Source: Clostridium minihomine
Lineage (GTDB): Bacteria > Bacillota > Clostridia > Oscillospirales > Acutalibacteraceae
Assembly (NCBI RefSeq): GCF_900240385.1
Contig: NZ_OEQH01000001.1
Span: 124,001-188,000 of the forward strand
Direction of reading: 5' to 3'
DNA length: 64,000 bases
The notes beneath the pieces are model-generated. The model saw only the letters and a list, made by a program, of their open reading frames with translations, was not told the DNA's origin and searched no databases. This document shows positions 1,786 through 16,221 of this stretch, piece after piece; the first letter of the stretch is position 1; every line of letters starts with the position of its first letter. Position numbers and translations under genes: made by a program.

Positions 1786-2670
1786 AAAAGGGTTTGTGTT
1801 TATAATGGAGTGTTATGCGCAGGAGGGTTCGTGCGGCCGCTCTTTTTCTGTGGGAAAATGATGCATTGCCGGCCAAAGAGAAGCAAAGCGTACCATCTGA
1901 ATGATAAGAAGGGTTTTATGTACGGAACAAATAAAAAAACCGATGGAAGAAGGCTTGTCCTTTCCATCGGTTTTTTATTTTGTTATGGCAAGAACACTGC
2001 GTTAAATGGATACAGTGGAAACAGATTTGGCTTGGAAAATAAAAAAGTAAAATCCGGCGGCAGCATTTCTGCCAAGCCCCATAAGAATGTTTTTTTCACA
2101 TAGGTGCAGATGAGAACCACACCGAAGAATAGACAAAAGCCTAATTGCAAGCAATCGGTAGAATCATTAGAGGAGCAAGGGATTCGGTTCCGCTGGAACT
2201 GTCAAAAAAATAATGGAAATTAATACAAATGAACTGTGTGGATCACACAACAAATAAAGCAAAAAATGAATAGATATATTGCGGGTAAGTTATTGACATT
2301 ATTTTCCATAAATGTTAGTGTTTATATAAATTAAACAAATTATTTTCTGTATTTTATTGATTTTATGGAATAAAAAACCTAAAATATTGGAAGAATTTCA
2401 GAAATTTATACGTTTGATACTTTCTGTCAATCAGGAAATGAAAATAGCAGATCTTATGAAAAGGTTGAAAAAACAAAAAGTGAAATAAAACTAGGGATAA
2501 GAGGAAGAAAGAGTAATTTTCAGAATAGCGGGGAATTGGGATTGTATGTGTCGGGCAAAGCCTTGCATAAATTATGTTACCAATTTACAGTGCAGCCGGA
2601 ATCAATGAACCCGATTGGGAGAAAGGAAGTGGAGCTTGATTTTGGGCTCTATCTTATAAGGTGATTTGTT
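1786..2670. other. Intergenic region upstream of lanB, no convincing gene
   Basis: Apart from the terminator at 1934-1978 this 885-base stretch holds no gene I can support. A perfect -35 hexamer TTGACA at 2293-2298 has only a poor -10 at normal spacing, so any promoter there would be weak or activator-dependent. Two overlapping frames without good starts look partly protein-like. One ends at 2488 with a basic, helical tail rich in lysine. The other ends at 2664, six bases before the lanB start, and has no ATG until its last 19 codons. They may be remnants of a decayed regulator or other gene, or chance open frames in AT-rich DNA. Confidence 0.5.
1934..1978 (+). terminator. Intrinsic terminator after the hydantoinase gene
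   Basis: AAAACCGATGGA pairs with TCCATCGGTTTT around a 15-base loop, and a T-rich tail follows. It closes the ygfK/hydA transcript. Confidence 0.85.
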
Positions 2671-5600
2671 GTGAAATATGATTGTCATACTGTTTTCATG
2701 ATAAGGGTTCCGTCTATGCCTTCTTTTCATGTGTGCCGTTATCTTCAATCCAAAAAATCTGCAAAAGAATATATCCAGGAGAATGGAATAGAAGATGCTT
2801 TTTTGGAATCATTACTGATCTCGAGTCAATCTTTATACCATTCGTATTTAGAGGACACAGAGGCTCATATCAAAAAAAATAAAAAAATAAAAATGTTAAA
2901 TAAATCGCTTACTCGATATTTAATTCGTGCTTCAAGCCGACCAACTCCCTTTGGAACCTGGGCCCGTGTTGGCTTAGGTTCGTGGGGAAAAGAAGATTCT
3001 GTTGTGATTGATTCAAAAAAGTTTCGAAAGAAGGCAACAGTAGATGAACTTTGGATGTCTTATATCATTTCTCAGTTAGAGAAAGATTTGGATCTATTAC
3101 AACATCTTGATCTAAAAATGAATCCGATCCTGTATCCTCAGGGTGACAGAATTAAAAATCCTTTTTGCTCAAATCATGGTTTGCTTGGGACAAAAGATCG
3201 GAAAGAGGTTCTGTTGCAAAGCCATATTAGAAAAACCGGATTAATTGATTTTCTTGCGAAAGAAGCGAAAGATTTTATTCCATGCCATTCCTTGATGGAG
3301 CGCATCGCTAATGAATACGTTGGAATTCCAACTGAATTAGTGAACCATACATTATTACAGCTAATAGAAAACGAGATATTAATTACAAACCTGCATTTAC
3401 CATCTTTCTGTAACGACCCCTTGCAGCATGTGCTTGCAGTGTTGGAACAAACCAATTGTAAGGTTGATCTATTAAAAGATTTAAGTGAACTGCAAGATAT
3501 GATTAAGAGATATGAAAATAGTTCGCCTAATGTCGAATTGCTTCAATCCATTTATCAAAGAATGTCTGCTTTCTATCAGGCAGATAACTACTTAAAAGTC
3601 GATGCCGGTTTACAATTTCAGCAAAATATTTTATCGGAAGATATCAAAGAAATTCTAGAAAACTTCGTAGAAAAATTTGCAAAATTAGCAGTCAATCAAA
3701 CAAAAACAAAAAATCTAAATCAGTTTAAAAACAAATTTTATGAAAAATACGGCCCAAATGTTGATGTGCCCATCTATGAAGTAATCGATGAAAAATCTTT
3801 TCATGGATTAAATTACTTTTCGTTTGAATCTGAATTCAAAGACAGCGATCGGGAATTGGCGATTAAATCGGTTTTGGATCAAAAAATCTTGGACGCATAC
3901 CTGAGTAAGAGTGAAGAAATTCACTTAAGCTTATCTGATTTTGATCGGCTTCATTTGGATGAGGAAGAGCTTATCTATGGAAGTTCTTTTGATTTAAATA
4001 CATTTATCTTTAAAAATGATCAAAATGAATACCGACTTGCAATAGGCCCGAATGTAGGCTCTACCAGTGCCGGAAAAATGTTTCAAAGGTTTTCAGAGGT
4101 ATACGATCCATCTTCTTATCATGCTTACAATCAGATATATGGAAAAATGATTGAGAAAACAAAAAATAATTATTGTATTGCCGAAATTAGAGAAGCGCCA
4201 ACATCAGGAAGAATTGCCAATATTATCAGTACTCATAAAACGTATGCTCATTATATCGCTATGGGAAATACCGAACAAAATTTAGAGGGTGAAATTTTAC
4301 TTCGTGATTTGGCGATTGGGATACAGGATAATAAGCAGTTATATATCAAATCCTTAAAAACAGATCAAATGGTAAAAGTGACCACCAACCATATGTTAAA
4401 TGTGGATTTAGGCAGCAAAATACAAAAGCTATTAATCACCATTTCGGAAGAGTATGAATCCTTTCCGCTTTCCAGAATATTTTCTTTATATCAGAATTCA
4501 TACCCTTATATTCCAAGGATCGTATTTGAAAAAGTCATTCTTTATCCGAAAATGTGGTTCTTATTCCCTGATTTTTTTCATTTAGAGACGCTGCAAACCT
4601 TTGAAAAAGATTTTATGCTATTTAAAGAGCGTTATCAGCTGGATGAAATGTTATATCTTGCAGAAGGGGACAACCGTTTGGTCATTGATATCACACAAAA
4701 GGAGTATCAAGAGTACCTATATGAGATTCTGAAAAAGAAACAAATCGTTAATCTGCGAGAAATGGAAGATAAAACATTTCAGCAATCCATTGTGCGAGAT
4801 GAAAATCAGAATCATTATCTTGCGGAGTATGTATTTTCCTTTGTGGCAAGGGAGAATCCAAAAGCAAACAGGTCAACGAGAAAAAGTTGTTTGCTGCAAA
4901 ATACGAACCATCGGTATCTTCTGGCAGAGAATGGATGGATTTATTTTAAACTATATGGAGTCGATAATCGCGAAACAGAATTTTTAACCAAGCTGTTAAA
5001 GCCCTCATTGAATCAGCTTTTACCAGAAAGATTCTTTTTTATCCGTTATCGGGACGATCAAAACCACTTGCGAATTCGATTGCAGTACCGCACATCAGAA
5101 GAGGCAATTCACAGTTTATATGAATTAACTTCTTTCCTCTGTCAATGGAGGGAAAAAGGTGTTGTGGGTAACGCTGTTTTTGATACTTATGAGCTGGAAG
5201 TAAATCGTTATGGCGGAACAGGATGCATAGAGGAACTGCATGAAGTTTTTTATCAAGATAGTCTTTGGGTCATCGCGATGCTCGAACAGTTTAAAGTCAA
5301 CGATGAAGACGAAAAAGAAATGGTTTACTTTGTCGGCATGATTTCAGCGTTTTTGTGCCTTACCGATTCAGTGGAAGAATTATTTGAAACATTGAATGAA
5401 GAAGGGCTGAAAAATTCCAATAAACCGGAATTTAAGAAAGAGAGATTAAAATATTTAAGGTGGTTTGAACTCATTCAAAAAGATCATCTGGAACAAATAG
5501 ACGAACGGTTTCTTCCGTTAAGAAATTCCTATTTAAAACGGCAAAATGCTTTTCGAAGCTTTCGTGACAAAATAAAAAGTCAAACACAGCTGACAAACAC

Positions 5601-5745
5601 AAAAAAAGAGATTCAATTTTCATTAGTGCACATGTTTTGCAACCGCATGACAGGGGTAATTGAATATGAAAGCCGTTGTTTGTCCCTAATTCGACATACC
5701 GTTTTTCATTCCTTAGAAAGGATGAAACATTTATCTGGCCAATAA
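2671..5745 (+). CDS. lanB: Class I lanthipeptide dehydratase LanB
   Basis: This 1024-residue protein has the size and layout of a full-length LanB. These enzymes activate Ser and Thr of a precursor peptide with glutamate from glutamyl-tRNA and then eliminate it to give dehydroalanine and dehydrobutyrine. The N-terminal glutamylation part carries the family signature SSRPTPFG at about residue 88. The C-terminal elimination domain (SpaB_C type, about residues 735-1010) shows the FFFIRYRD, HLRIRL and NRYGG motifs. The start is GTG at 2671, six bases after AAGGTGAT. It is the first gene of the operon, directly before the precursor. Composition is clearly AT-richer than the hydantoinase gene, which suggests acquisition by transfer. 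Confidence 0.95.
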   Translation: MKYDCHTVFMIRVPSMPSFHVCRYLQSKKSAKEYIQENGIEDAFLESLLISSQSLYHSYLEDTEAHIKKNKKIKMLNKSLTRYLIRASSRPTPFGTWARVGLGSWGKEDSVVIDSKKFRKKATVDELWMSYIISQLEKDLDLLQHLDLKMNPILYPQGDRIKNPFCSNHGLLGTKDRKEVLLQSHIRKTGLIDFLAKEAKDFIPCHSLMERIANEYVGIPTELVNHTLLQLIENEILITNLHLPSFCNDPLQHVLAVLEQTNCKVDLLKDLSELQDMIKRYENSSPNVELLQSIYQRMSAFYQADNYLKVDAGLQFQQNILSEDIKEILENFVEKFAKLAVNQTKTKNLNQFKNKFYEKYGPNVDVPIYEVIDEKSFHGLNYFSFESEFKDSDRELAIKSVLDQKILDAYLSKSEEIHLSLSDFDRLHLDEEELIYGSSFDLNTFIFKNDQNEYRLAIGPNVGSTSAGKMFQRFSEVYDPSSYHAYNQIYGKMIEKTKNNYCIAEIREAPTSGRIANIISTHKTYAHYIAMGNTEQNLEGEILLRDLAIGIQDNKQLYIKSLKTDQMVKVTTNHMLNVDLGSKIQKLLITISEEYESFPLSRIFSLYQNSYPYIPRIVFEKVILYPKMWFLFPDFFHLETLQTFEKDFMLFKERYQLDEMLYLAEGDNRLVIDITQKEYQEYLYEILKKKQIVNLREMEDKTFQQSIVRDENQNHYLAEYVFSFVARENPKANRSTRKSCLLQNTNHRYLLAENGWIYFKLYGVDNRETEFLTKLLKPSLNQLLPERFFFIRYRDDQNHLRIRLQYRTSEEAIHSLYELTSFLCQWREKGVVGNAVFDTYELEVNRYGGTGCIEELHEVFYQDSLWVIAMLEQFKVNDEDEKEMVYFVGMISAFLCLTDSVEELFETLNEEGLKNSNKPEFKKERLKYLRWFELIQKDHLEQIDERFLPLRNSYLKRQNAFRSFRDKIKSQTQLTNTKKEIQFSLVHMFCNRMTGVIEYESRCLSLIRHTVFHSLERMKHLSGQ

Positions 5746-5760
5746 GGCACCCTTATTTTT
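5741..5760 (+). terminator. Weak hairpin with T tail at the end of lanB
   Basis: AATAAGG and CCTTATT form a seven-base-pair stem with a three-base loop and are followed by TTT. It overlaps the lanB stop codon. It is too weak to be a certain terminator, but could reduce read-through and separate lanB from lanA expression levels. Confidence 0.35.
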
Positions 5761-5764
5761 GCTA

Positions 5765-5783
5765 ATTACAAAAGCCTAGATGT
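5765..5783 (+). repeat. Left arm of a 19-base inverted repeat around lanA
   Basis: This arm pairs with 6025-6043 on the other side of lanA: 14 bases (5765-5778, ATTACAAAAGCCTA) match perfectly, then one G-T pair, then four more matched bases. The arm ends just upstream of the lanA ribosome binding site. It could be one end of a mobile cassette or one side of a long-range RNA stem. Confidence 0.8.
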
Positions 5784-5803
5784 ATCATAGGAGGAAAAAT
5801 ATC

Positions 5804-5989
5804 ATGGGAAAATTTGATGATTTTGATTTGGATTTTACAAAGGTATCAGCAGCAGCCGAAAACTCATCTGAACGGGCTGGCATTGCCGTTCCGAAACTTG
5901 CTATCAATTGGAGTAAAATCAGCTGCGCTTGCTCCCCCAGCGATATGACTGTTTGCCGCGCAGGCGCTCCCGGCCAGTTAAGGTGCTAA
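5804..5989 (+). CDS. lanA: Class I lanthipeptide precursor peptide LanA
   Basis: The 61-residue product has the features of a class I lanthipeptide precursor. An FDLD box at residues 7-10 corresponds to the F-N/D-L-D leader motif recognised by LanB and LanC in nisin-type systems. The C-terminal core holds four Cys (41, 43, 51, 61) and Ser/Thr at 37, 40, 44, 46 and 49, all absent or different in the leader. An ER|AG site at 24-25 is one possible leader cleavage point. AGGAGG lies at 5789-5794, ten bases before the ATG. The core does not match nisin, epidermin, subtilin, Pep5 or planosporicin patterns that I know; it lacks their CTPGC-type ring and ends in Cys. Ring pattern and activity cannot be read from sequence alone. 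Confidence 0.9.
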   Translation: MGKFDDFDLDFTKVSAAAENSSERAGIAVPKLAINWSKISCACSPSDMTVCRAGAPGQLRC

Positions 5990-6024
5990 TTTTACAGTAA
6001 AAATGCTAACACATAAACATTAAA

Positions 6025-6043
6025 ACATTTAGGCTTTTGTAAT
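6025..6043 (-). repeat. Right arm of the inverted repeat around lanA
   Basis: Reverse complement of the arm at 5765-5783, with 18 of 19 positions in Watson-Crick register and one G-T. It lies 35 bases after the lanA stop codon. No transposase gene or GC-rich terminator stem accompanies it. Confidence 0.8.
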
Positions 6044-6119
6044 GTTATATTTTAAAAAAATTAATGAGTTTAAAGAAATTATCTGAGGACATCACAACAG
6101 ACCAGAGGAGAGAATAAGT

Positions 6120-6263
6120 ATGGAACAAAAACAAGAAAATCAGTTTTTTGCTTATTCCGGTGCAGCCTTGTTAGCTCTATTCATACTAACGCTTTTTAGC
6201 TCTTATGTAGAAGTAGGAAGCAATTGTCCATTCCTTAATACCGTGGGGATATTCAAGCCCTAA
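6120..6263 (+). CDS. Small membrane protein in the lanthipeptide operon, possible immunity peptide
   Basis: A 47-residue frame begins with ATG at 6120 behind AGGAGAG (6105-6111). It has a charged N-terminus, one hydrophobic segment at about residues 9-30 and a short polar tail. I do not recognise the family. Its place between lanA and lanC, and the lack of LanI or LanFEG genes nearby, make a self-protection role plausible, but this is inference. The frame may be truncated: see the open frame at 6217-6384, which continues to just before lanC in the +1 register. Confidence 0.55.
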   Translation: MEQKQENQFFAYSGAALLALFILTLFSSYVEVGSNCPFLNTVGIFKP

Positions 6264-6384
6264 TGTCTATGTGAGAAATCAGGAAGAGGAATTGTGGTTT
6301 TTTGAAAAACAATACTGGAATCAAACAGCAATCAAACAGTGTAAATCTTTTCAAGAATTCGCAATGCTGAAAAGAGAGAAGTGA
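6217..6384 (+). pseudogene. Open frame that may be the shifted C-terminal part of the small membrane protein
   Basis: This frame runs 55 codons to a TGA at 6382-6384, eleven bases before the lanC start. It has no ATG until nine codons from its end. Its content (a stretch with VYVRNQEEELWFFEKQYW and further charged residues) looks like protein. It overlaps the end of the 6120-6263 frame in the +1 register, so a single base change in 6217-6263 would join the two into one protein of about 87 residues. It may be a frameshifted gene, a programmed frameshift, or a sequence error. Confidence 0.4.
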
Positions 6385-6394
6385 GGGATTTCAA

Positions 6395-7693
6395 TTGTTA
6401 AAAAGTCTTGATTCAAAAATCGTTTCAGAACATTCTTTAAATGAGATCGATATCTTTCTAAATCAGTATTATTCCGATGTTTTTAAATTATATAAAGAGC
6501 AGAGAATCAGTCCGGATCAATATGCGGATCTATTGCTGACGATTGCTTGCGGGCTGGACTTTTTTGAAGATAAGGAAATCGGGATAGAAATGGGGTATCA
6601 TTTGTGTTTGGGCATAAAACAAGAAGTAGAACGGTTTCCGCCTGAAACAGAAGAATTAGGGATGATAGCCGGTTTCGGAAATATCTGTTTTTCGGTACAT
6701 AAATTTGTGGAAAGTGCGGGGATATTACATAGCTTTTCAAACTCCTTAAACAAATTATTATTAATACAGGCAGACAAGTTTCTGAAACAAACTCCAGACC
6801 GGTTTGGGACGAATATGAATCACTATGACATGGTATTTGGAATGGCTGGTATACTGAATTATCTTTTGGAGTTTGAATGGGACATGGAACAGAAAAAAAC
6901 GATCGAAAAGATCATTATCTATTTAGTGGACTTATCTCAGGACTACAATTATCAAGGGGAAAAGTTAATTCGATATCATATTCCCGTGGGCGAGCAAAAA
7001 AGGGAAGATGAAAAGCGTGACTTCCCAAATGGACATATCAATTTTGGGGCTGCACATGGAATGGCGGGCCCTCTTTTAGCTTTGTCCAAAGCATATTATT
7101 CTGGATATGAGGTTGACGGGCTAAAATCAGCGATTCAAAAACTGTTCCATCTGTATGATTCGTTCCAAGTGTTTTCAGATCATACAATACGATGGCCCAC
7201 CCAATTATCGGTGGAAGATTACTTAAACCAAAAATACAATGATATTTATCGCCCTAATTTTGCAGGGTGGTGTTATGGAAATTTGGGAACGGCTTCTGTG
7301 CTTTATACTGCATCAAAATACAATGAAGATCTGGAAAAAATAAATTTCTATCAACGACAATTGTGTAAAATCATTAATCGAGAAGTTCAGGAGTATCAGT
7401 TATATAAAATTGGGATTTGTCATGGCTATGCGGGGATGCTGTTTATTCGTATGGCGTTCTTTGCTGAAACCAATGAACCGGATTTTATAAATACCTTGCA
7501 GATGCAAATTGACTGGATGCTGGACCAGATAAAACAATATAAATCGGATGATGGCGTTTATGATTTTGGTGCGATGAAGGAATTGTTTGAAGGGGAAGCT
7601 TTGTTTTTAACTGATTTATCAGGAGTGGTTCTTGCATTTCTGGCCGTATTCGGAAAAACAGATAGCTTGAAATTAGTATTGGGATTAAAATAG
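6395..7693 (+). CDS. lanC: Lanthipeptide cyclase LanC
   Basis: This 432-residue protein is a LanC-type zinc cyclase, which joins Cys thiols to dehydrated residues to form lanthionine rings. The zinc ligands are visible: Cys at about 293 in GWCYG and the Cys-His pair at about 342-343 in ICHGYAG. The repeated glycine-rich HGMAG-like motifs of the alpha/alpha barrel occur at about residues 150, 217 and 343. The start is a TTG at 6395 with GAGGGA seven bases upstream; no ATG fits better. The stop codon is directly followed by the lanT ATG, so the two are translated from one message. Confidence 0.93.
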   Translation: MLKSLDSKIVSEHSLNEIDIFLNQYYSDVFKLYKEQRISPDQYADLLLTIACGLDFFEDKEIGIEMGYHLCLGIKQEVERFPPETEELGMIAGFGNICFSVHKFVESAGILHSFSNSLNKLLLIQADKFLKQTPDRFGTNMNHYDMVFGMAGILNYLLEFEWDMEQKKTIEKIIIYLVDLSQDYNYQGEKLIRYHIPVGEQKREDEKRDFPNGHINFGAAHGMAGPLLALSKAYYSGYEVDGLKSAIQKLFHLYDSFQVFSDHTIRWPTQLSVEDYLNQKYNDIYRPNFAGWCYGNLGTASVLYTASKYNEDLEKINFYQRQLCKIINREVQEYQLYKIGICHGYAGMLFIRMAFFAETNEPDFINTLQMQIDWMLDQIKQYKSDDGVYDFGAMKELFEGEALFLTDLSGVVLAFLAVFGKTDSLKLVLGLK

Positions 7694-9466
7694 ATGAAGA
7701 AAAATAAAAAGGGAATAGAAAACATCAAAAGAAGTATCTCACTGATTCAATTACAAGATAAAAAATTTTTATTTATGTCCTTAGTCACCACAGTTCTATT
7801 AAGTTTATTTCCGGTTTGTTCGCTTTTGATTATGCAGTCAATTATTAATTATATACAAATCGGAACACTGGACATGAAACTCATTGCGATTTTAGTTTTA
7901 TTCTATATCGCAATCGATATTATACAAACGATAGTGCAAGTCATATGGCAGCAATATAATTTGAAGTTTTCACTAAACTTTAAATTATATATTGAGACTC
8001 TTCTTCAAAAGAAAATTAAAAATATGAATTTATCGGATTATGAAACCAGTGAAATATACGATCAGCTTCAGCTGGCTCAAAGTCAAAATGGCACGCAGCT
8101 ATTAGAAACCATCAATTTATTAATTCAGCTGATTGGCAGCATCACGGGCATCGTGTCTCATATCCTCATATTAATTCACTTTAAGGCATGGATTATTGTT
8201 GTAATTATGATTCTGCCTGCCGTGAAATATATCGTTACCAATCAGTTAAATCAAGAGCAATACGATATCGTAACATCTCGTGCCACGGGGGCCAGAAAAA
8301 TTTGGTATTGGAATTATTTAATCACTTCAGGACGTCATTTTAAAGAATTGACAGTATATCACTTGTTTGATTTCTTTATTCAAAAATATAGAAAAGAATC
8401 AGAAAAGTTTAATGGACAAGATATCAAACTTTCGAAGAAACGGAATCTCTTTTTAACGATATTGACAGTCATCGAAATTTTAATTAATGGCTTGGTATTT
8501 TCCTTTATTATCTATTCCGGTTATATCGGGGTTATTTTAATCGGTAATATTATTACATATACCCGGTCAATTATTGCGACAAAATCAGGCGTGGATACTT
8601 CGTTAAATACCATTTCGACGATTAAGCAGTCCTCCCTTTATATCAACCTGTTTTTTGAATTTTTAGACTTGCCGTCTAAAGAAATGGGGGATAAAAATTT
8701 ACAGATAATCAAAAAAATAGATTCGATTGAAGTGCGTAATTTATCCTTTCGATACAAGGGGAAATCTCAATACACCATTAAGAATATGAGTTTCACTTTA
8801 AAAAGGGATCAGTTAACCGTTATTGTAGGAGAGAATGGAGCAGGAAAAACAACTTTAGCCAAAATCCTGATTGGTTTCTATGACGAATATGAGGGTGAAA
8901 TCTATATTAATGGTGTAGATCTAAAGCAAATTAATAAAGAAGAATATATGGCGCTGATTGCAACTGTGTTTCAAGACTTTACCCAGTATGAAGCCACCGT
9001 AAAAGAAAATATCGGTTATGGCAATTTAAAAGCAATCGATGAGGAAGACAGAATCAAAGAGGTGCAAGCTGTATTTCAAAGCAATTTTCTTCCGCTTCAT
9101 GCTCAAATCGGGAATTGGTTTGACGACGGAACCCAGATTTCGATGGGGCAATGGCAGAAAATTGCGTTGTCCAGGGCATTCTTAAAAGATGCTGATTTGT
9201 ATCTTTTAGATGAGCCCAATGCGGCACTAGATCCCATTTCTGAATTTGAAATTGCACAGCTATACCACAAAATTTTAAAAAATAAGCTGGGGATTATCAT
9301 TGCACATAAATTCAATCATTTCATTTTTAATGCTGATAATATCTTGGTCATTGAAGATGGAGAAATAAAAGAGCAGGGCACTCATGAAGAATTGCTTCAA
9401 AACAAAAACAAATATTATGAATTGTTTTCTGTACAATCTGAAACCGGAAAGAACCACGTTCTTTGA
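7694..9466 (+). CDS. lanT: Lanthipeptide ABC exporter LanT without peptidase domain
   Basis: This 590-residue half-transporter has an N-terminal membrane domain (about residues 25-320) and a C-terminal ATPase. Walker A (GENGAGKTT) is at about residue 379, the signature (SMGQWQK) at about 482 and Walker B (LYLLDEP) at about 502. The signature differs from LSGGQ, which is common in this family. There is no N-terminal C39 peptidase domain, so the leader is not removed during export by this protein; NisT-type exporters of class I systems are the same. No leader protease gene is seen in the operon. It starts at the base after the lanC stop. Confidence 0.9.
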   Translation: MKKNKKGIENIKRSISLIQLQDKKFLFMSLVTTVLLSLFPVCSLLIMQSIINYIQIGTLDMKLIAILVLFYIAIDIIQTIVQVIWQQYNLKFSLNFKLYIETLLQKKIKNMNLSDYETSEIYDQLQLAQSQNGTQLLETINLLIQLIGSITGIVSHILILIHFKAWIIVVIMILPAVKYIVTNQLNQEQYDIVTSRATGARKIWYWNYLITSGRHFKELTVYHLFDFFIQKYRKESEKFNGQDIKLSKKRNLFLTILTVIEILINGLVFSFIIYSGYIGVILIGNIITYTRSIIATKSGVDTSLNTISTIKQSSLYINLFFEFLDLPSKEMGDKNLQIIKKIDSIEVRNLSFRYKGKSQYTIKNMSFTLKRDQLTVIVGENGAGKTTLAKILIGFYDEYEGEIYINGVDLKQINKEEYMALIATVFQDFTQYEATVKENIGYGNLKAIDEEDRIKEVQAVFQSNFLPLHAQIGNWFDDGTQISMGQWQKIALSRAFLKDADLYLLDEPNAALDPISEFEIAQLYHKILKNKLGIIIAHKFNHFIFNADNILVIEDGEIKEQGTHEELLQNKNKYYELFSVQSETGKNHVL

Positions 9467-9487
9467 AATGTGGTTCTTTTCTATTTT
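9449..9487 (+). terminator. Intrinsic terminator of the lanthipeptide operon
   Basis: AAGAACCAC pairs with GTGGTTCTT, followed by TTCTATTTTTATT. The left arm overlaps the last lanT codons. Confidence 0.85.
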
Positions 9488-9834
9488 TATTACAACCAGA
9501 GAATCAGGCTGTATGCTTTTTCAAAGGCTAACCACCTTTTCGCTTAACCACAAGCGGTAATGCGGGCAGAGCTTTAGTTTGCGTTTGCAAGACTGGTTTT
9601 GTCTTTAGATTCTATGTATGGATTGCTTAATACCAATGAAGTTGAATAAGAAAATGAAAGAAAAATCCATTCTGCAAAAATGGTCTCGCACATAAAAACA
9701 AATTCGCTTGCTTTGAGCAGATGAACTGTGTTATCCTTTCACCATGAAAACCAGTCGGCAGAAAAACCGGAATGCCCTGTATAATAAAGTGAGCATGTCA
9801 GACAAAATTCAATTCACAGAAAGGCAGAGTTGCG
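9488..9834. other. Intergenic region, nothing recognised
   Basis: This stretch between the lanthipeptide operon and the methyltransferase gene shows no frame, hairpin or promoter that I can support beyond the ribosome binding site of the next gene. Confidence 0.5.
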
Positions 9835-10593
9835 ATGCTGAGTTATTATGGTAGATTATCTTCTGAAGTATATGATATGGATAAGCCCATCGGCCATTCT
9901 TTTGGAGATGTGGAATTTTATAGGGAGCGGTTAAAGACATGCACTGGGCCTGTTTTGGAACCGGCAACAGGAACCGGCCGGATACTGATACCGCTTTTAG
10001 AACAAGGTATTCAGGTTGCGGGATTTGACAGCTCAAAAGAAATGCTGAATCTTTGTCGTCGTAACTGTAAAAAAAGGGGGTTAAGCCCAAAACTTTTTGA
10101 GGCAAAGATGGAGTCTTTTTCAGAAGACACAAAGTATGATGCGATTATCGTGCCAACCGGAACTTTTCTTTTATTGCATAAACGCGAAGATTCCATTCAG
10201 GCATTACAAAACTTTTATCAGCATTTATCAAATCGTGGCAGACTGATTCTTGACCTGTTTTTGCAGACAGATATTTCAATCGGAACAGTTTCCACAAAAA
10301 CCTGGGAATGCCCGAATGGGGATATTATTACCTTAGAAAATAAAACAGTGGAAGTCGATTATATCAATCAATACACGATATCTCATGGAAGATATGAAAA
10401 GTGGCGGGAAGGTGTGCTTCTGCAAACGGAATTAGAGTATTTTCCATTGCGATGGTATGGGGTAGAAGAGTTTCGATCCATCCTGGAATGGATCGGATTT
10501 AAAGATATTGTTATTTCTGCCGATTATCAATGGGGGCAGTATCCTTCCAGTCCAGAAGCGATTGTTACGTTTGAGGCGGTTGCTGAAAAATAA
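9835..10593 (+). CDS. Class I SAM-dependent methyltransferase
   Basis: This 252-residue protein has the S-adenosylmethionine binding motif I (LEPATGTGRIL) at about residues 41-51, the acidic end of the second strand (GFDSS) at about 63 and a motif IV-like DAIIVPTGTF at about 102. The rest follows the Rossmann-like methyltransferase fold. The substrate cannot be predicted. It begins at ATG 9835 behind GAAAGGCAG. It is separated from lanT by a terminator and 350 bases, so it is probably not part of the lanthipeptide operon, although tailoring methylation cannot be excluded. Confidence 0.8.
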   Translation: MLSYYGRLSSEVYDMDKPIGHSFGDVEFYRERLKTCTGPVLEPATGTGRILIPLLEQGIQVAGFDSSKEMLNLCRRNCKKRGLSPKLFEAKMESFSEDTKYDAIIVPTGTFLLLHKREDSIQALQNFYQHLSNRGRLILDLFLQTDISIGTVSTKTWECPNGDIITLENKTVEVDYINQYTISHGRYEKWREGVLLQTELEYFPLRWYGVEEFRSILEWIGFKDIVISADYQWGQYPSSPEAIVTFEAVAEK

Positions 10594-14262: not shown

Positions 14263-16221
14263 TTAAAATGCCCCAGAGCGCGAATGAAAAACAGACTGCA
14301 TATTTTTACCAACGGCTTTCAGCAGCTCTTTTGGCAGTTTTTCTACCTGCTCCCCAATCATCACTCCACGGGGCTGTTTGTATCCTTCGTTCCAGACAAA
14401 ATCAAATATTTTTTCATTGGTGCTGTTGTTCTTTCCGATTTGAAAGGCGTAAATTTCAACGTTTTTTGACAGCAAGTCCTTTACCGCTTCTTTGGCAGAA
14501 CCAGGAAAACTGGAAGCGCCATCTGTAATTTCAAAGATAATTTTGATTTGTTTTCCCTTTTGCAGTTCACTTTGCTGCAAAGGTGTAATGCGGCTGCAAA
14601 TTTCTCGCAGGCAGGCGGCGTCATCTGTGGCTCCATCTGTTGCATCAAGTTTGACAATAGAGCGGATAATATCACTTTTTTCTTTTTCTTTTGCACTTTT
14701 ATCGTTAAATTTTTTTACATGATAATAGGCACTGCCAAAAAACCAGGTTTCGCTTAAAACAGACACTTTTTGATTGAGCTGTTCCGCATTGCTTTTTAAA
14801 TATTGGTTAAAATCATCGATGGATAAAAGTGTTACGGCCAAGGCTTTTCTGGCAGCTTCTATTTTGGACGCGTTCATCGAACCGGAGTTGTCGATCACAA
14901 AAGAAATCTCAATTCGTTCCGGCAAGATATTTGCCTGGGGTTCCAGAACATATCGGTTAAAAATGGGAAGATTTTTGTAATTCCCCTTTTTTTCTGCTTC
15001 GGTTAACTCCGGATAGGAGTGAATCAGGCTGTTGACATCCAGTTTTCCTTTGATTTGATCTTCTTTTTTGACGCTGACTTCTTTTTTGGCGTTGCCGATT
15101 AGCTTTTTCCAAAATTGCCGCATTTGATCTCGTTCCGCTTTCATTTGCTTGGAATAGAATTGAAACAATTGCTGATCCGATTGCGTAATTCCATAGGGTT
15201 CTAAATTCACCTTACCCAGCATGGCATTTTGAATGCTTTCACTTACCTGGTCTTGCTGCTCCAGCATATCTTCTAAAATTTGATCAATTTCTTGTTGTGT
15301 GGACTCTAAAGAATCGGGAACCTCTTTGGATGGGGAAGGTTCAAAGGGAGGGCTGTTTCCTTTTCCCGGTTCTCCGGTTTGCCCCACAGAAGGCGAAAAC
15401 TCCATTTCTTCGATCTCGTCTTTCCACAACTGCTCAAAGGTTGGAAAAACAAAAGAGCGCAAGAAGGGATCCCTCTCTAAAATTCCGGCGCCCTTGTTGA
15501 TTTGCCGAATGAGTTGATTGGAAACAAAATCAAATAAAGGCTGATGAAATATTGTTTGTTCAAAGGGGTTTTGTGTCCAACTGTCTGCTTTGGGTTGGGT
15601 TTGATAAAGTTCTATGAGGGTAAAACTGTTGGCAAACGCCCGGTGCCCGGGCAGTGGAGCAATGGATTCCAGTGTTTTGCCGTTTTGCTTCATCGAGAGA
15701 ACTATTTTCTCAAAATATTCTTTATCTCTATAGATGGGGCACAGCTGAAGAACTCTTAAAAATGAGGTGTAATAATCCATGACATGCAGGAATTCCAGAA
15801 TCTCTTTTCCCACATAGCGGGAAAGCACGGGGGGCTGATAAGCAGGATCCTTTTCTAACGACTCAGCTTTTACTTTGCTGAGAAGATAAGCGGTCATGCG
15901 ATCGATTTCTTTTTGCCAGCCTTTTTTTCTGTATCGATATTTTCTGGTTTGCTTTTTCCAGTCGGGGTATAGGGCCAGTTCATAATAGATATGCCACAGA
16001 ATTTGATTCTCATCTAATTCCCGCTCCAAAAAACTTTGCAGCGGCAAATAGAGCACACCTTTGGCCGGATCTAAGCGAAAACGCTGTAATTTTGCGTCGG
16101 GCAAATACAGTAAACTGGGATCCCCGGTGAAAGTTGCTAATGCACGTTGCTCTTTCTGCAAAAATTCTTCGCAGTGCCTTTGGGCTTCTTCGATTAGACT
16201 TTGCTCATCCCATTCAAACAT
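14263..16221 (-). CDS. VWA domain protein of a MoxR-VWA-propeller operon
   Basis: This 652-residue protein has a long helical N-terminal half and a C-terminal von Willebrand A domain. The MIDAS metal site is visible as DNSGS at residues 444-448, with a later TDDAA block and an ITDGASS block that complete it. The middle (about residues 290-340) is rich in Ser, Pro and Glu, probably a flexible linker. The start at 16221 is preferred because a run of six G lies seven bases upstream; ATG 16227 is too close to that site. It is the last gene of the operon, 13 bases after the propeller-like gene. VWA proteins of this kind act as adaptors for MoxR-type AAA+ ATPases, as ViaA does for RavA. Confidence 0.85.
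   Translation of the reverse strand: MFEWDEQSLIEEAQRHCEEFLQKEQRALATFTGDPSLLYLPDAKLQRFRLDPAKGVLYLPLQSFLERELDENQILWHIYYELALYPDWKKQTRKYRYRKKGWQKEIDRMTAYLLSKVKAESLEKDPAYQPPVLSRYVGKEILEFLHVMDYYTSFLRVLQLCPIYRDKEYFEKIVLSMKQNGKTLESIAPLPGHRAFANSFTLIELYQTQPKADSWTQNPFEQTIFHQPLFDFVSNQLIRQINKGAGILERDPFLRSFVFPTFEQLWKDEIEEMEFSPSVGQTGEPGKGNSPPFEPSPSKEVPDSLESTQQEIDQILEDMLEQQDQVSESIQNAMLGKVNLEPYGITQSDQQLFQFYSKQMKAERDQMRQFWKKLIGNAKKEVSVKKEDQIKGKLDVNSLIHSYPELTEAEKKGNYKNLPIFNRYVLEPQANILPERIEISFVIDNSGSMNASKIEAARKALAVTLLSIDDFNQYLKSNAEQLNQKVSVLSETWFFGSAYYHVKKFNDKSAKEKEKSDIIRSIVKLDATDGATDDAACLREICSRITPLQQSELQKGKQIKIIFEITDGASSFPGSAKEAVKDLLSKNVEIYAFQIGKNNSTNEKIFDFVWNEGYKQPRGVMIGEQVEKLPKELLKAVGKNMQSVFHSRSGAF

What the first reader, a model, noticed from the sequence alone, without database searches (positions are those of the whole stretch)
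2671..9466. Compact class I lanthipeptide operon with an unfamiliar core peptide
The sequence shows lanB, a 61-residue FDLD-leader precursor, lanC and lanT in one operon. The core has four Cys at 41, 43, 51 and 61 and five Ser/Thr, lacks the CTPGC ring of nisin and epidermin, and ends in Cys. I know of no described lanthipeptide with this core. Leader protease, two-component regulator and LanFEG immunity genes are missing, so processing and immunity must come from elsewhere.
Basis: partly seen in the sequence, partly recalled or inferred. Interest (0 to 1): 0.72.

Follow-up and report, generated by a model that had tools for sequence, protein, structure and literature searches.

The report
Lanthipeptide operon with hairpin-enclosed precursor gene
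A bacterium carries an acquired set of genes for a new family of ring-bearing, antimicrobial-type peptide, and in this and related bacteria the small precursor gene sits between two matching sequences that would fold its messenger RNA into a closed loop, probably so that the cell can make more precursor than enzyme.

Summary
The operon is real and is a class I lanthipeptide cluster: lanB 2671-5745, lanA 5804-5989, lanC 6395-7693, lanT 7694-9466, with catalytic residues intact. The core is not nisin-like but is not alone: Clostridium pascui, C. mobile and C. liquoris encode the same C-terminal module (SxxC-S[PL][SG]DMT-C-RC). It scores below the curated nisin and FDLD cut-offs. The 'missing' genes are partly explained: sister clusters carry CAAX-type proteases and/or a LanJB-like FMN reductase between lanA and lanC, and here only the reductase's last ~33 residues survive, just upstream of lanC. 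No S8 protease was found in the genome. The unexpected result: lanA is bracketed by a 19-nt inverted repeat (5765-5783/6025-6043), the only one of its strength and span in the 64 kb. Brackets of other sequence enclose one to three lanA copies in 13 of 19 members of the LanB clade, and in none of 14 outgroup clusters. They show compensatory changes and a sense-strand G-U excess (13 against 2 A-C). I propose a long-range mRNA stem that releases or protects the lanA segment so that precursor outnumbers enzyme. The stem is well supported; its function is inferred.

The parts
2671..5745 (+). lanB, class I dehydratase (1024 aa, GTG start)
   Evidence: PF04738 and PF14028; residues matching MadB R89, R93, T95, D128, D308, R483, R822, R864, H1005 present as R86, R90, T92, D125, D311, R473, R792, R846, H987
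5765..5783 (+). left arm of the inverted repeat that brackets lanA
   Evidence: only inverted repeat of score 15 or more within 1.5 kb in the window
5804..5989 (+). lanA, 61-aa precursor with FDLD leader; core MxS..SKISCACSPSDMTVCRAGAPGQLRC in residues 25-61
6025..6043 (+). right arm of the inverted repeat that brackets lanA
   Evidence: mean pair probability 0.98 on the sense strand
6120..6263 (+). 47-aa ORF with a ribosome-binding site and one hydrophobic stretch; no relative found; possibly the start of a deleted gene
   Evidence: no similarity above shuffles to sister CAAX proteases
6280..6384 (+). remnant: C-terminal ~33 residues of a LanJB-like FMN reductase, no good start codon
   Evidence: profile of eight sister-cluster reductases, E 2.6e-8 over six frames of the window; found again by a genome-wide search, 55% identity
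6395..7693 (+). lanC, cyclase (432 aa, TTG start)
   Evidence: PF05147; expected zinc ligands C293, C342, H343 present; related to MadC 8byk
7694..9466 (+). lanT, ABC exporter without peptidase domain (590 aa)
   Evidence: PF00005
9446..9481 (+). terminator-like stem (15 pairs) at the end of lanT

Best explanation
A horizontally acquired, partly reduced class I lanthipeptide operon. Shown from sequence: LanB and LanC carry the residues needed to dehydrate and cyclise LanA; LanT lacks a peptidase; the core belongs to a family with a conserved C-terminal module; a LanJB-like reductase gene has been lost down to its tail; lanA is enclosed by an inverted repeat that relatives also have, with compensatory changes. 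Inferred: LanB dehydrates up to five core residues and LanC closes up to four rings, most likely S37-C41, S40-C43, S44-C51 and T49-C61, leaving S46 as dehydroalanine because the reductase that might reduce it is gone. In the polycistronic mRNA the two repeats pair into a long-range stem around lanA. A double-strand-specific nuclease such as RNase III cuts the stem, or the stem shields the segment, so that lanA RNA outlasts the enzyme genes' RNA and precursor is made in excess. The leader is removed by a host protease that is not an S8 subtilase.
For: Domains and catalytic residues. Core family in four species, z 11.4 for C. pascui. Reductase remnant in the syntenic place. Low G+C island and no LanB in three congeners. 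Bracket: unique in the window, present in 13 of 19 clade members and 0 of 14 outside, stronger than all 200 shuffles of its flanks in the window and most relatives, 13 G-U against 2 A-C on the sense strand, compensatory changes, pair probability 0.98 in the window, lanA always in operon sense where bracketed.
Against: No transcript, cleavage or product data. The whole bracket region folds no better than shuffles (z -0.22), although the stem itself appears in the predicted structures. The bracket is absent in the Lachnospiraceae/C. difficile group and in two other clade members, and in T. pigra, G1039 lanA2 and L027 the duplex energy is not better than shuffles. G-U counts are partly shared between close relatives, and C. 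liquoris and Peptostreptococcus D1 have an A-C instead. Ring pattern is not determined.
Confidence: 0.55

Rival explanations
1. The inverted repeats are recombination sites: the lanA segment is an invertible DNA cassette that is switched on and off (phase variation).
For: Long, nearly perfect repeats directly flank the gene in many species; inverted repeats of this length serve as invertible switches in C. difficile (general knowledge; papers listed).
Against: Every bracketed lanA runs with the operon; mismatches favour G-U over A-C on the sense strand, 13 to 2; the sequences differ between species, so no common recombinase site; no recombinase gene beside the window's operon.
Confidence: 0.15
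2. The cluster is a decaying relic: after loss of the reductase and perhaps of a protease it no longer makes a mature peptide.
For: Reductase remnant; no S8 protease found in the genome; no LanE-type permease over the cut-off; stop codons break lanB in two related clusters.
Against: All four core ORFs are full length and catalytic residues are intact; the bracket pairing is intact; C. mobile also has lanC directly after its lanA genes without reductase or CAAX protease between.
Confidence: 0.2
3. The repeats are footprints of lanA cassette duplication or insertion, kept alike by gene conversion, without a function in RNA.
For: Two or three lanA copies lie within one bracket in C. mobile and M8S5, and Evtepia has two bracketed lanA units with similar arms.
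Against: Compensatory changes and one-sided changes to G-U on the sense strand; arms lie outside the ribosome-binding site and stop codon in every case; presence follows the LanB tree.
Confidence: 0.1

Closest known systems
Maddinglicin system (MadA, MadB, MadC) of Clostridium maddingley
   Same: Best solved-structure match of LanB (9g04, E 7.5e-71) and of LanC (8byk, 6.1e-32); FDLD leader; same enzymes.
   Different: The core here has no CTPGC and no resemblance to nisin-type cores; the nisin-type clusters examined here have no lanA bracket.
Nisin/gallidermin family lantibiotics (TIGR03731)
   Same: Class I enzymes and an FDLD-type leader (leader-only match, 17.1 bits).
   Different: Below the 29.3-bit cut-off; no CTPGC ring; no LanP, LanFEG or LanRK in the cluster.
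[quoted passage not shown]
   Same: Sister clusters encode members between lanA and lanC; PMC7268733 notes such genes in class I clusters.
   Different: In the window only the C-terminal tail is left; activity in class I is unproven.
Selective RNA processing and stabilisation in operons (PMC10667835, abstract) and RNase III stems around pre-rRNA (general knowledge)
   Same: Intercistronic structure that can set the ratio of products from one transcript; a stem enclosing the product segment.
   Different: Here the enclosed segment is a protein-coding precursor gene; cleavage and stability are not shown.

Membership tests
Class I lanthipeptide cluster | LanB with glutamylation and elimination domains and their catalytic residues | tested here: met
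   PF04738 and PF14028; nine residues mapped
Class I lanthipeptide cluster | LanC cyclase with zinc ligands | tested here: met
   PF05147; C293, C342, H343
Class I lanthipeptide cluster | Precursor with FxLD leader and a core with Ser/Thr before Cys | tested here: met
Class I lanthipeptide cluster | Product with lanthionine rings | not testable with these tools
   needs expression and mass spectrometry
Nisin/gallidermin family (TIGR03731) | Score over curated cut-off; CTPGC ring | tested here: not met
   17.1 against 29.3 bits; no CTPGC
FDLD family class I lanthipeptide (NF038155) | Score over curated cut-off | tested here: not met
   12.5 against 20 bits
SDMT core family (defined here: window, C. 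pascui, C. mobile, C. liquoris) | SxxC-S-x-x-D-M-T-x(1,2)-C, C-terminal Cys | tested here: met
   only these hits in 1.24 million six-frame residues; alignment
Cluster with its own LanP subtilase | S8 peptidase (PF00082) | tested here: not met
   none found in the whole genome; control genomes ring
LanJB-containing cluster | Intact FMN reductase gene | tested here: not met
   only the C-terminal tail is left
lanA-bracketing stem | Inverted repeat directly flanking lanA in intergenic space | tested here: met
lanA-bracketing stem | Pairing kept while sequence changes | tested here: met
   compensatory changes in close pairs; G-U 13, A-C 2
RNase III-processed or stabilised operon segment | RNA ends at the stem and excess of the enclosed RNA | not testable with these tools
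   needs RNA end mapping
Invertible DNA switch | Both orientations observed; strand-symmetric mismatches | tested here: inconclusive
   one orientation only and strand-asymmetric mismatches, but no reads were available

The most novel reading that the evidence does not exclude
A clade of class I lanthipeptide operons in Clostridia uses a long-range mRNA stem to enclose one to three precursor genes within the polycistronic message; cutting of the stem excises, or the stem protects, an independent precursor mRNA, and so sets the precursor-to-enzyme ratio after transcription.
Probability: 0.45. Interest if true: 0.75.

Novelty: new variant of a known kind. Interest (0 to 1): 0.58.

Why it matters
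Pathways of this kind need more precursor than enzyme (general knowledge). When lanA sits inside the operon behind lanB, something must uncouple its level. A conserved stem enclosing the gene would be a simple, testable answer, and a marker for precursor genes that curated models miss (this one scores below every cut-off). The core adds an uncharacterised lanthipeptide family with a conserved C-terminal module, and the reductase remnant predicts that this product keeps a dehydroalanine that sister products may lose.

Tried and rejected
The 47-aa ORF as the truncated start of a CAAX protease: no similarity above shuffles. Plasmid-borne LanA relatives: none convincing. LanE-type immunity elsewhere in the genome: one weak hit far below the cut-off. 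A PDB relative of LanA: none. Insertion site by comparison with congeners: the upstream gene has no match in them, so an empty site could not be shown. A genome-contig scan with LanB alone found nothing; an alignment query worked. The strong repeat in G1224 (L067) lies directly after each of two lanA copies; I take it for a duplicated palindromic terminator, not a bracket (reading of the coordinates). Literature on brackets or phase variation of lanthipeptide genes: nothing relevant found.

Full report
What is there. The operon is as described: lanB 2671-5745, lanA 5804-5989, lanC 6395-7693, lanT 7694-9466, all on the + strand, closed by a terminator-like stem at 9446-9481. Domain searches confirm LanB, LanC and LanT. 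Mapping onto the published MadB residues (PMC12241602) shows all nine glutamylation and elimination residues in place (R86, R90, T92, D125, D311, R473, R792, R846, H987); LanC has the expected zinc ligands. It is the only LanB found in the genome. G+C is 31-40% across 2001-9500, against 44-55% to the left and about 39-51% over the next 5 kb to the right, and the three congeners searched have no LanB relative. I infer horizontal acquisition.

The core. The precursor scores below both curated class I precursor models (17.1 against 29.3 bits and 12.5 against 20). A LanB alignment query over one genome per species fetched 19 loci, and their small FxLD ORFs were listed. Three species carry the same C-terminal module: C. 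pascui (z 11.4, none of 3000 shuffles as good), C. liquoris (z 7.1, none) and C. mobile (z 4.3, 3 of 3000; two copies). The pattern SxxC-S-x-x-D-M-T-x(1,2)-C...C-stop hits nothing else in 1.24 million six-frame residues of fetched sequence. The motif words occur in no paper of the library. Conserved residues suggest rings S40-C43 and S44/T49 with C51/C61; S37-C41 is the fourth option in the window. The ring pattern is inference.

The missing genes. In many relatives the stretch between lanA and lanC holds CAAX-type (PF02517) proteases and/or one or two FMN_red (PF03358) reductases. Reductases of this family are called LanJB when they reduce dehydro residues to D-amino acids (PMC7268733). A profile of eight sister-cluster reductases, run on all six frames of the window, hits 6280-6378 at E 2.6e-8, covering only the last ~33 residues, directly upstream of lanC; the next hit has E 0.3. 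A separate search of the whole genome with the C. pascui reductase finds the same fragment (55% identity). So the reductase was lost here. The 47-aa ORF before it (6120-6263) has no detectable relative. No S8 peptidase was found in the genome and no LanE-type permease over the cut-off; three CAAX-type proteases lie on other contigs. How the leader is removed stays open.

The bracket. Repeat analysis showed a 19-nt inverted repeat around lanA (5765-5783 and 6025-6043; 18 Watson-Crick pairs and one G-U). It is the only inverted repeat of score 15 or more with arms within 1.5 kb in the 64-kb window, and the same holds for the whole fetched locus in six relatives (L016, L017, L019, L027, L029, L030). 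Relatives have their own arms: C. pascui 27 nt, C. mobile 26 nt around a pair of lanA genes, C. liquoris 18, M8S5 12 around three lanA genes, Tissierella simiarum 17, T. pigra 14, G1039 19, SUG277 36, Evtepia 28 and 32 around two separate lanA genes, Peptostreptococcus D1 23, S11_Bin2 22 and 21. Duplex energies beat all 200 shuffles of the flanks in the window, C. pascui, C. liquoris, the C. mobile pair, M8S5, T. simiarum, SUG277, both Evtepia units and Peptostreptococcus; they do not for T. pigra, G1039 (3 of 200 for lanA1), L027 and L029 (7 of 200), where at least one flank taken was long. Of 296 control genes 7 reach score 13, and two of those are lanA arms themselves. Mismatches on the sense strand are 13 G-U against 2 A-C; these counts are not fully independent between close relatives. 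Compensatory changes occur between close relatives: A-T to C-G in C. pascui/C. mobile, G-C to A-T in the two S11_Bin2 clusters, three in SUG277/Evtepia unit 2. On the LanB tree the bracket is confined to one supported clade (13 of 19 members) and absent from the 14 clusters outside; four changes in all, against a shuffled mean of 10.5. The stem has mean pair probability 0.98 in the window and 0.76 or more in every bracketed locus, though the energy of the whole region is ordinary (z -0.22).

Interpretation. The arms sit between the previous gene and the lanA ribosome-binding site, and after the lanA stop; every bracketed lanA runs with the operon; G-U is favoured on the sense strand. This points to RNA rather than to a DNA inversion switch. 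The most likely use is selective processing or stabilisation of the lanA segment, so that precursor exceeds enzymes; such control is described for other operons (title and abstract of PMC10667835). Cleavage, stability and stoichiometry are not shown here. In the window the enclosed segment is 241 nt.

Verdict. As a lanthipeptide operon this is a new member with a new core family, in a cluster that has lost at least one tailoring gene. The enclosing stem makes it a new variant and is the part worth following up.

Noticed in passing
window 5876-5986: The lanA core codes at 57% G+C, while lanB, lanC, lanT and the flanks are 33-37%.
   Followed up: no
L066 (G1259 contig 42) 593-5480, minus strand: About eleven different FxLD precursor ORFs in tandem near one LanB; no bracket seen there.
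   Followed up: no
L011 (Clostridium liquoris), LanB codon 740: An in-frame TAG interrupts lanB of C. liquoris, seen in both copies fetched; LanB of G1261 has two stops.
   Followed up: no
L031 (Clostridioides difficile CD10-165) 15534-15773, minus strand: A class I precursor gene lies antisense to its lanC-lanT-lanB-lanC genes, beside a gene that looks like an integrase; no bracket.
   Followed up: partly
L017 (Clostridium pascui) 7108-9954: Response regulator, GHKL kinase and AgrB directly upstream of lanB: agr-type quorum sensing probably controls that cluster.
   Followed up: no
window 1926-1984: Strong terminator-like inverted repeat after the hydantoinase-like gene, upstream of the operon.
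   Followed up: no
window 9835-10593: A SAM-dependent methyltransferase gene follows the operon after its terminator; nothing shows that it belongs to the cluster.
   Followed up: no
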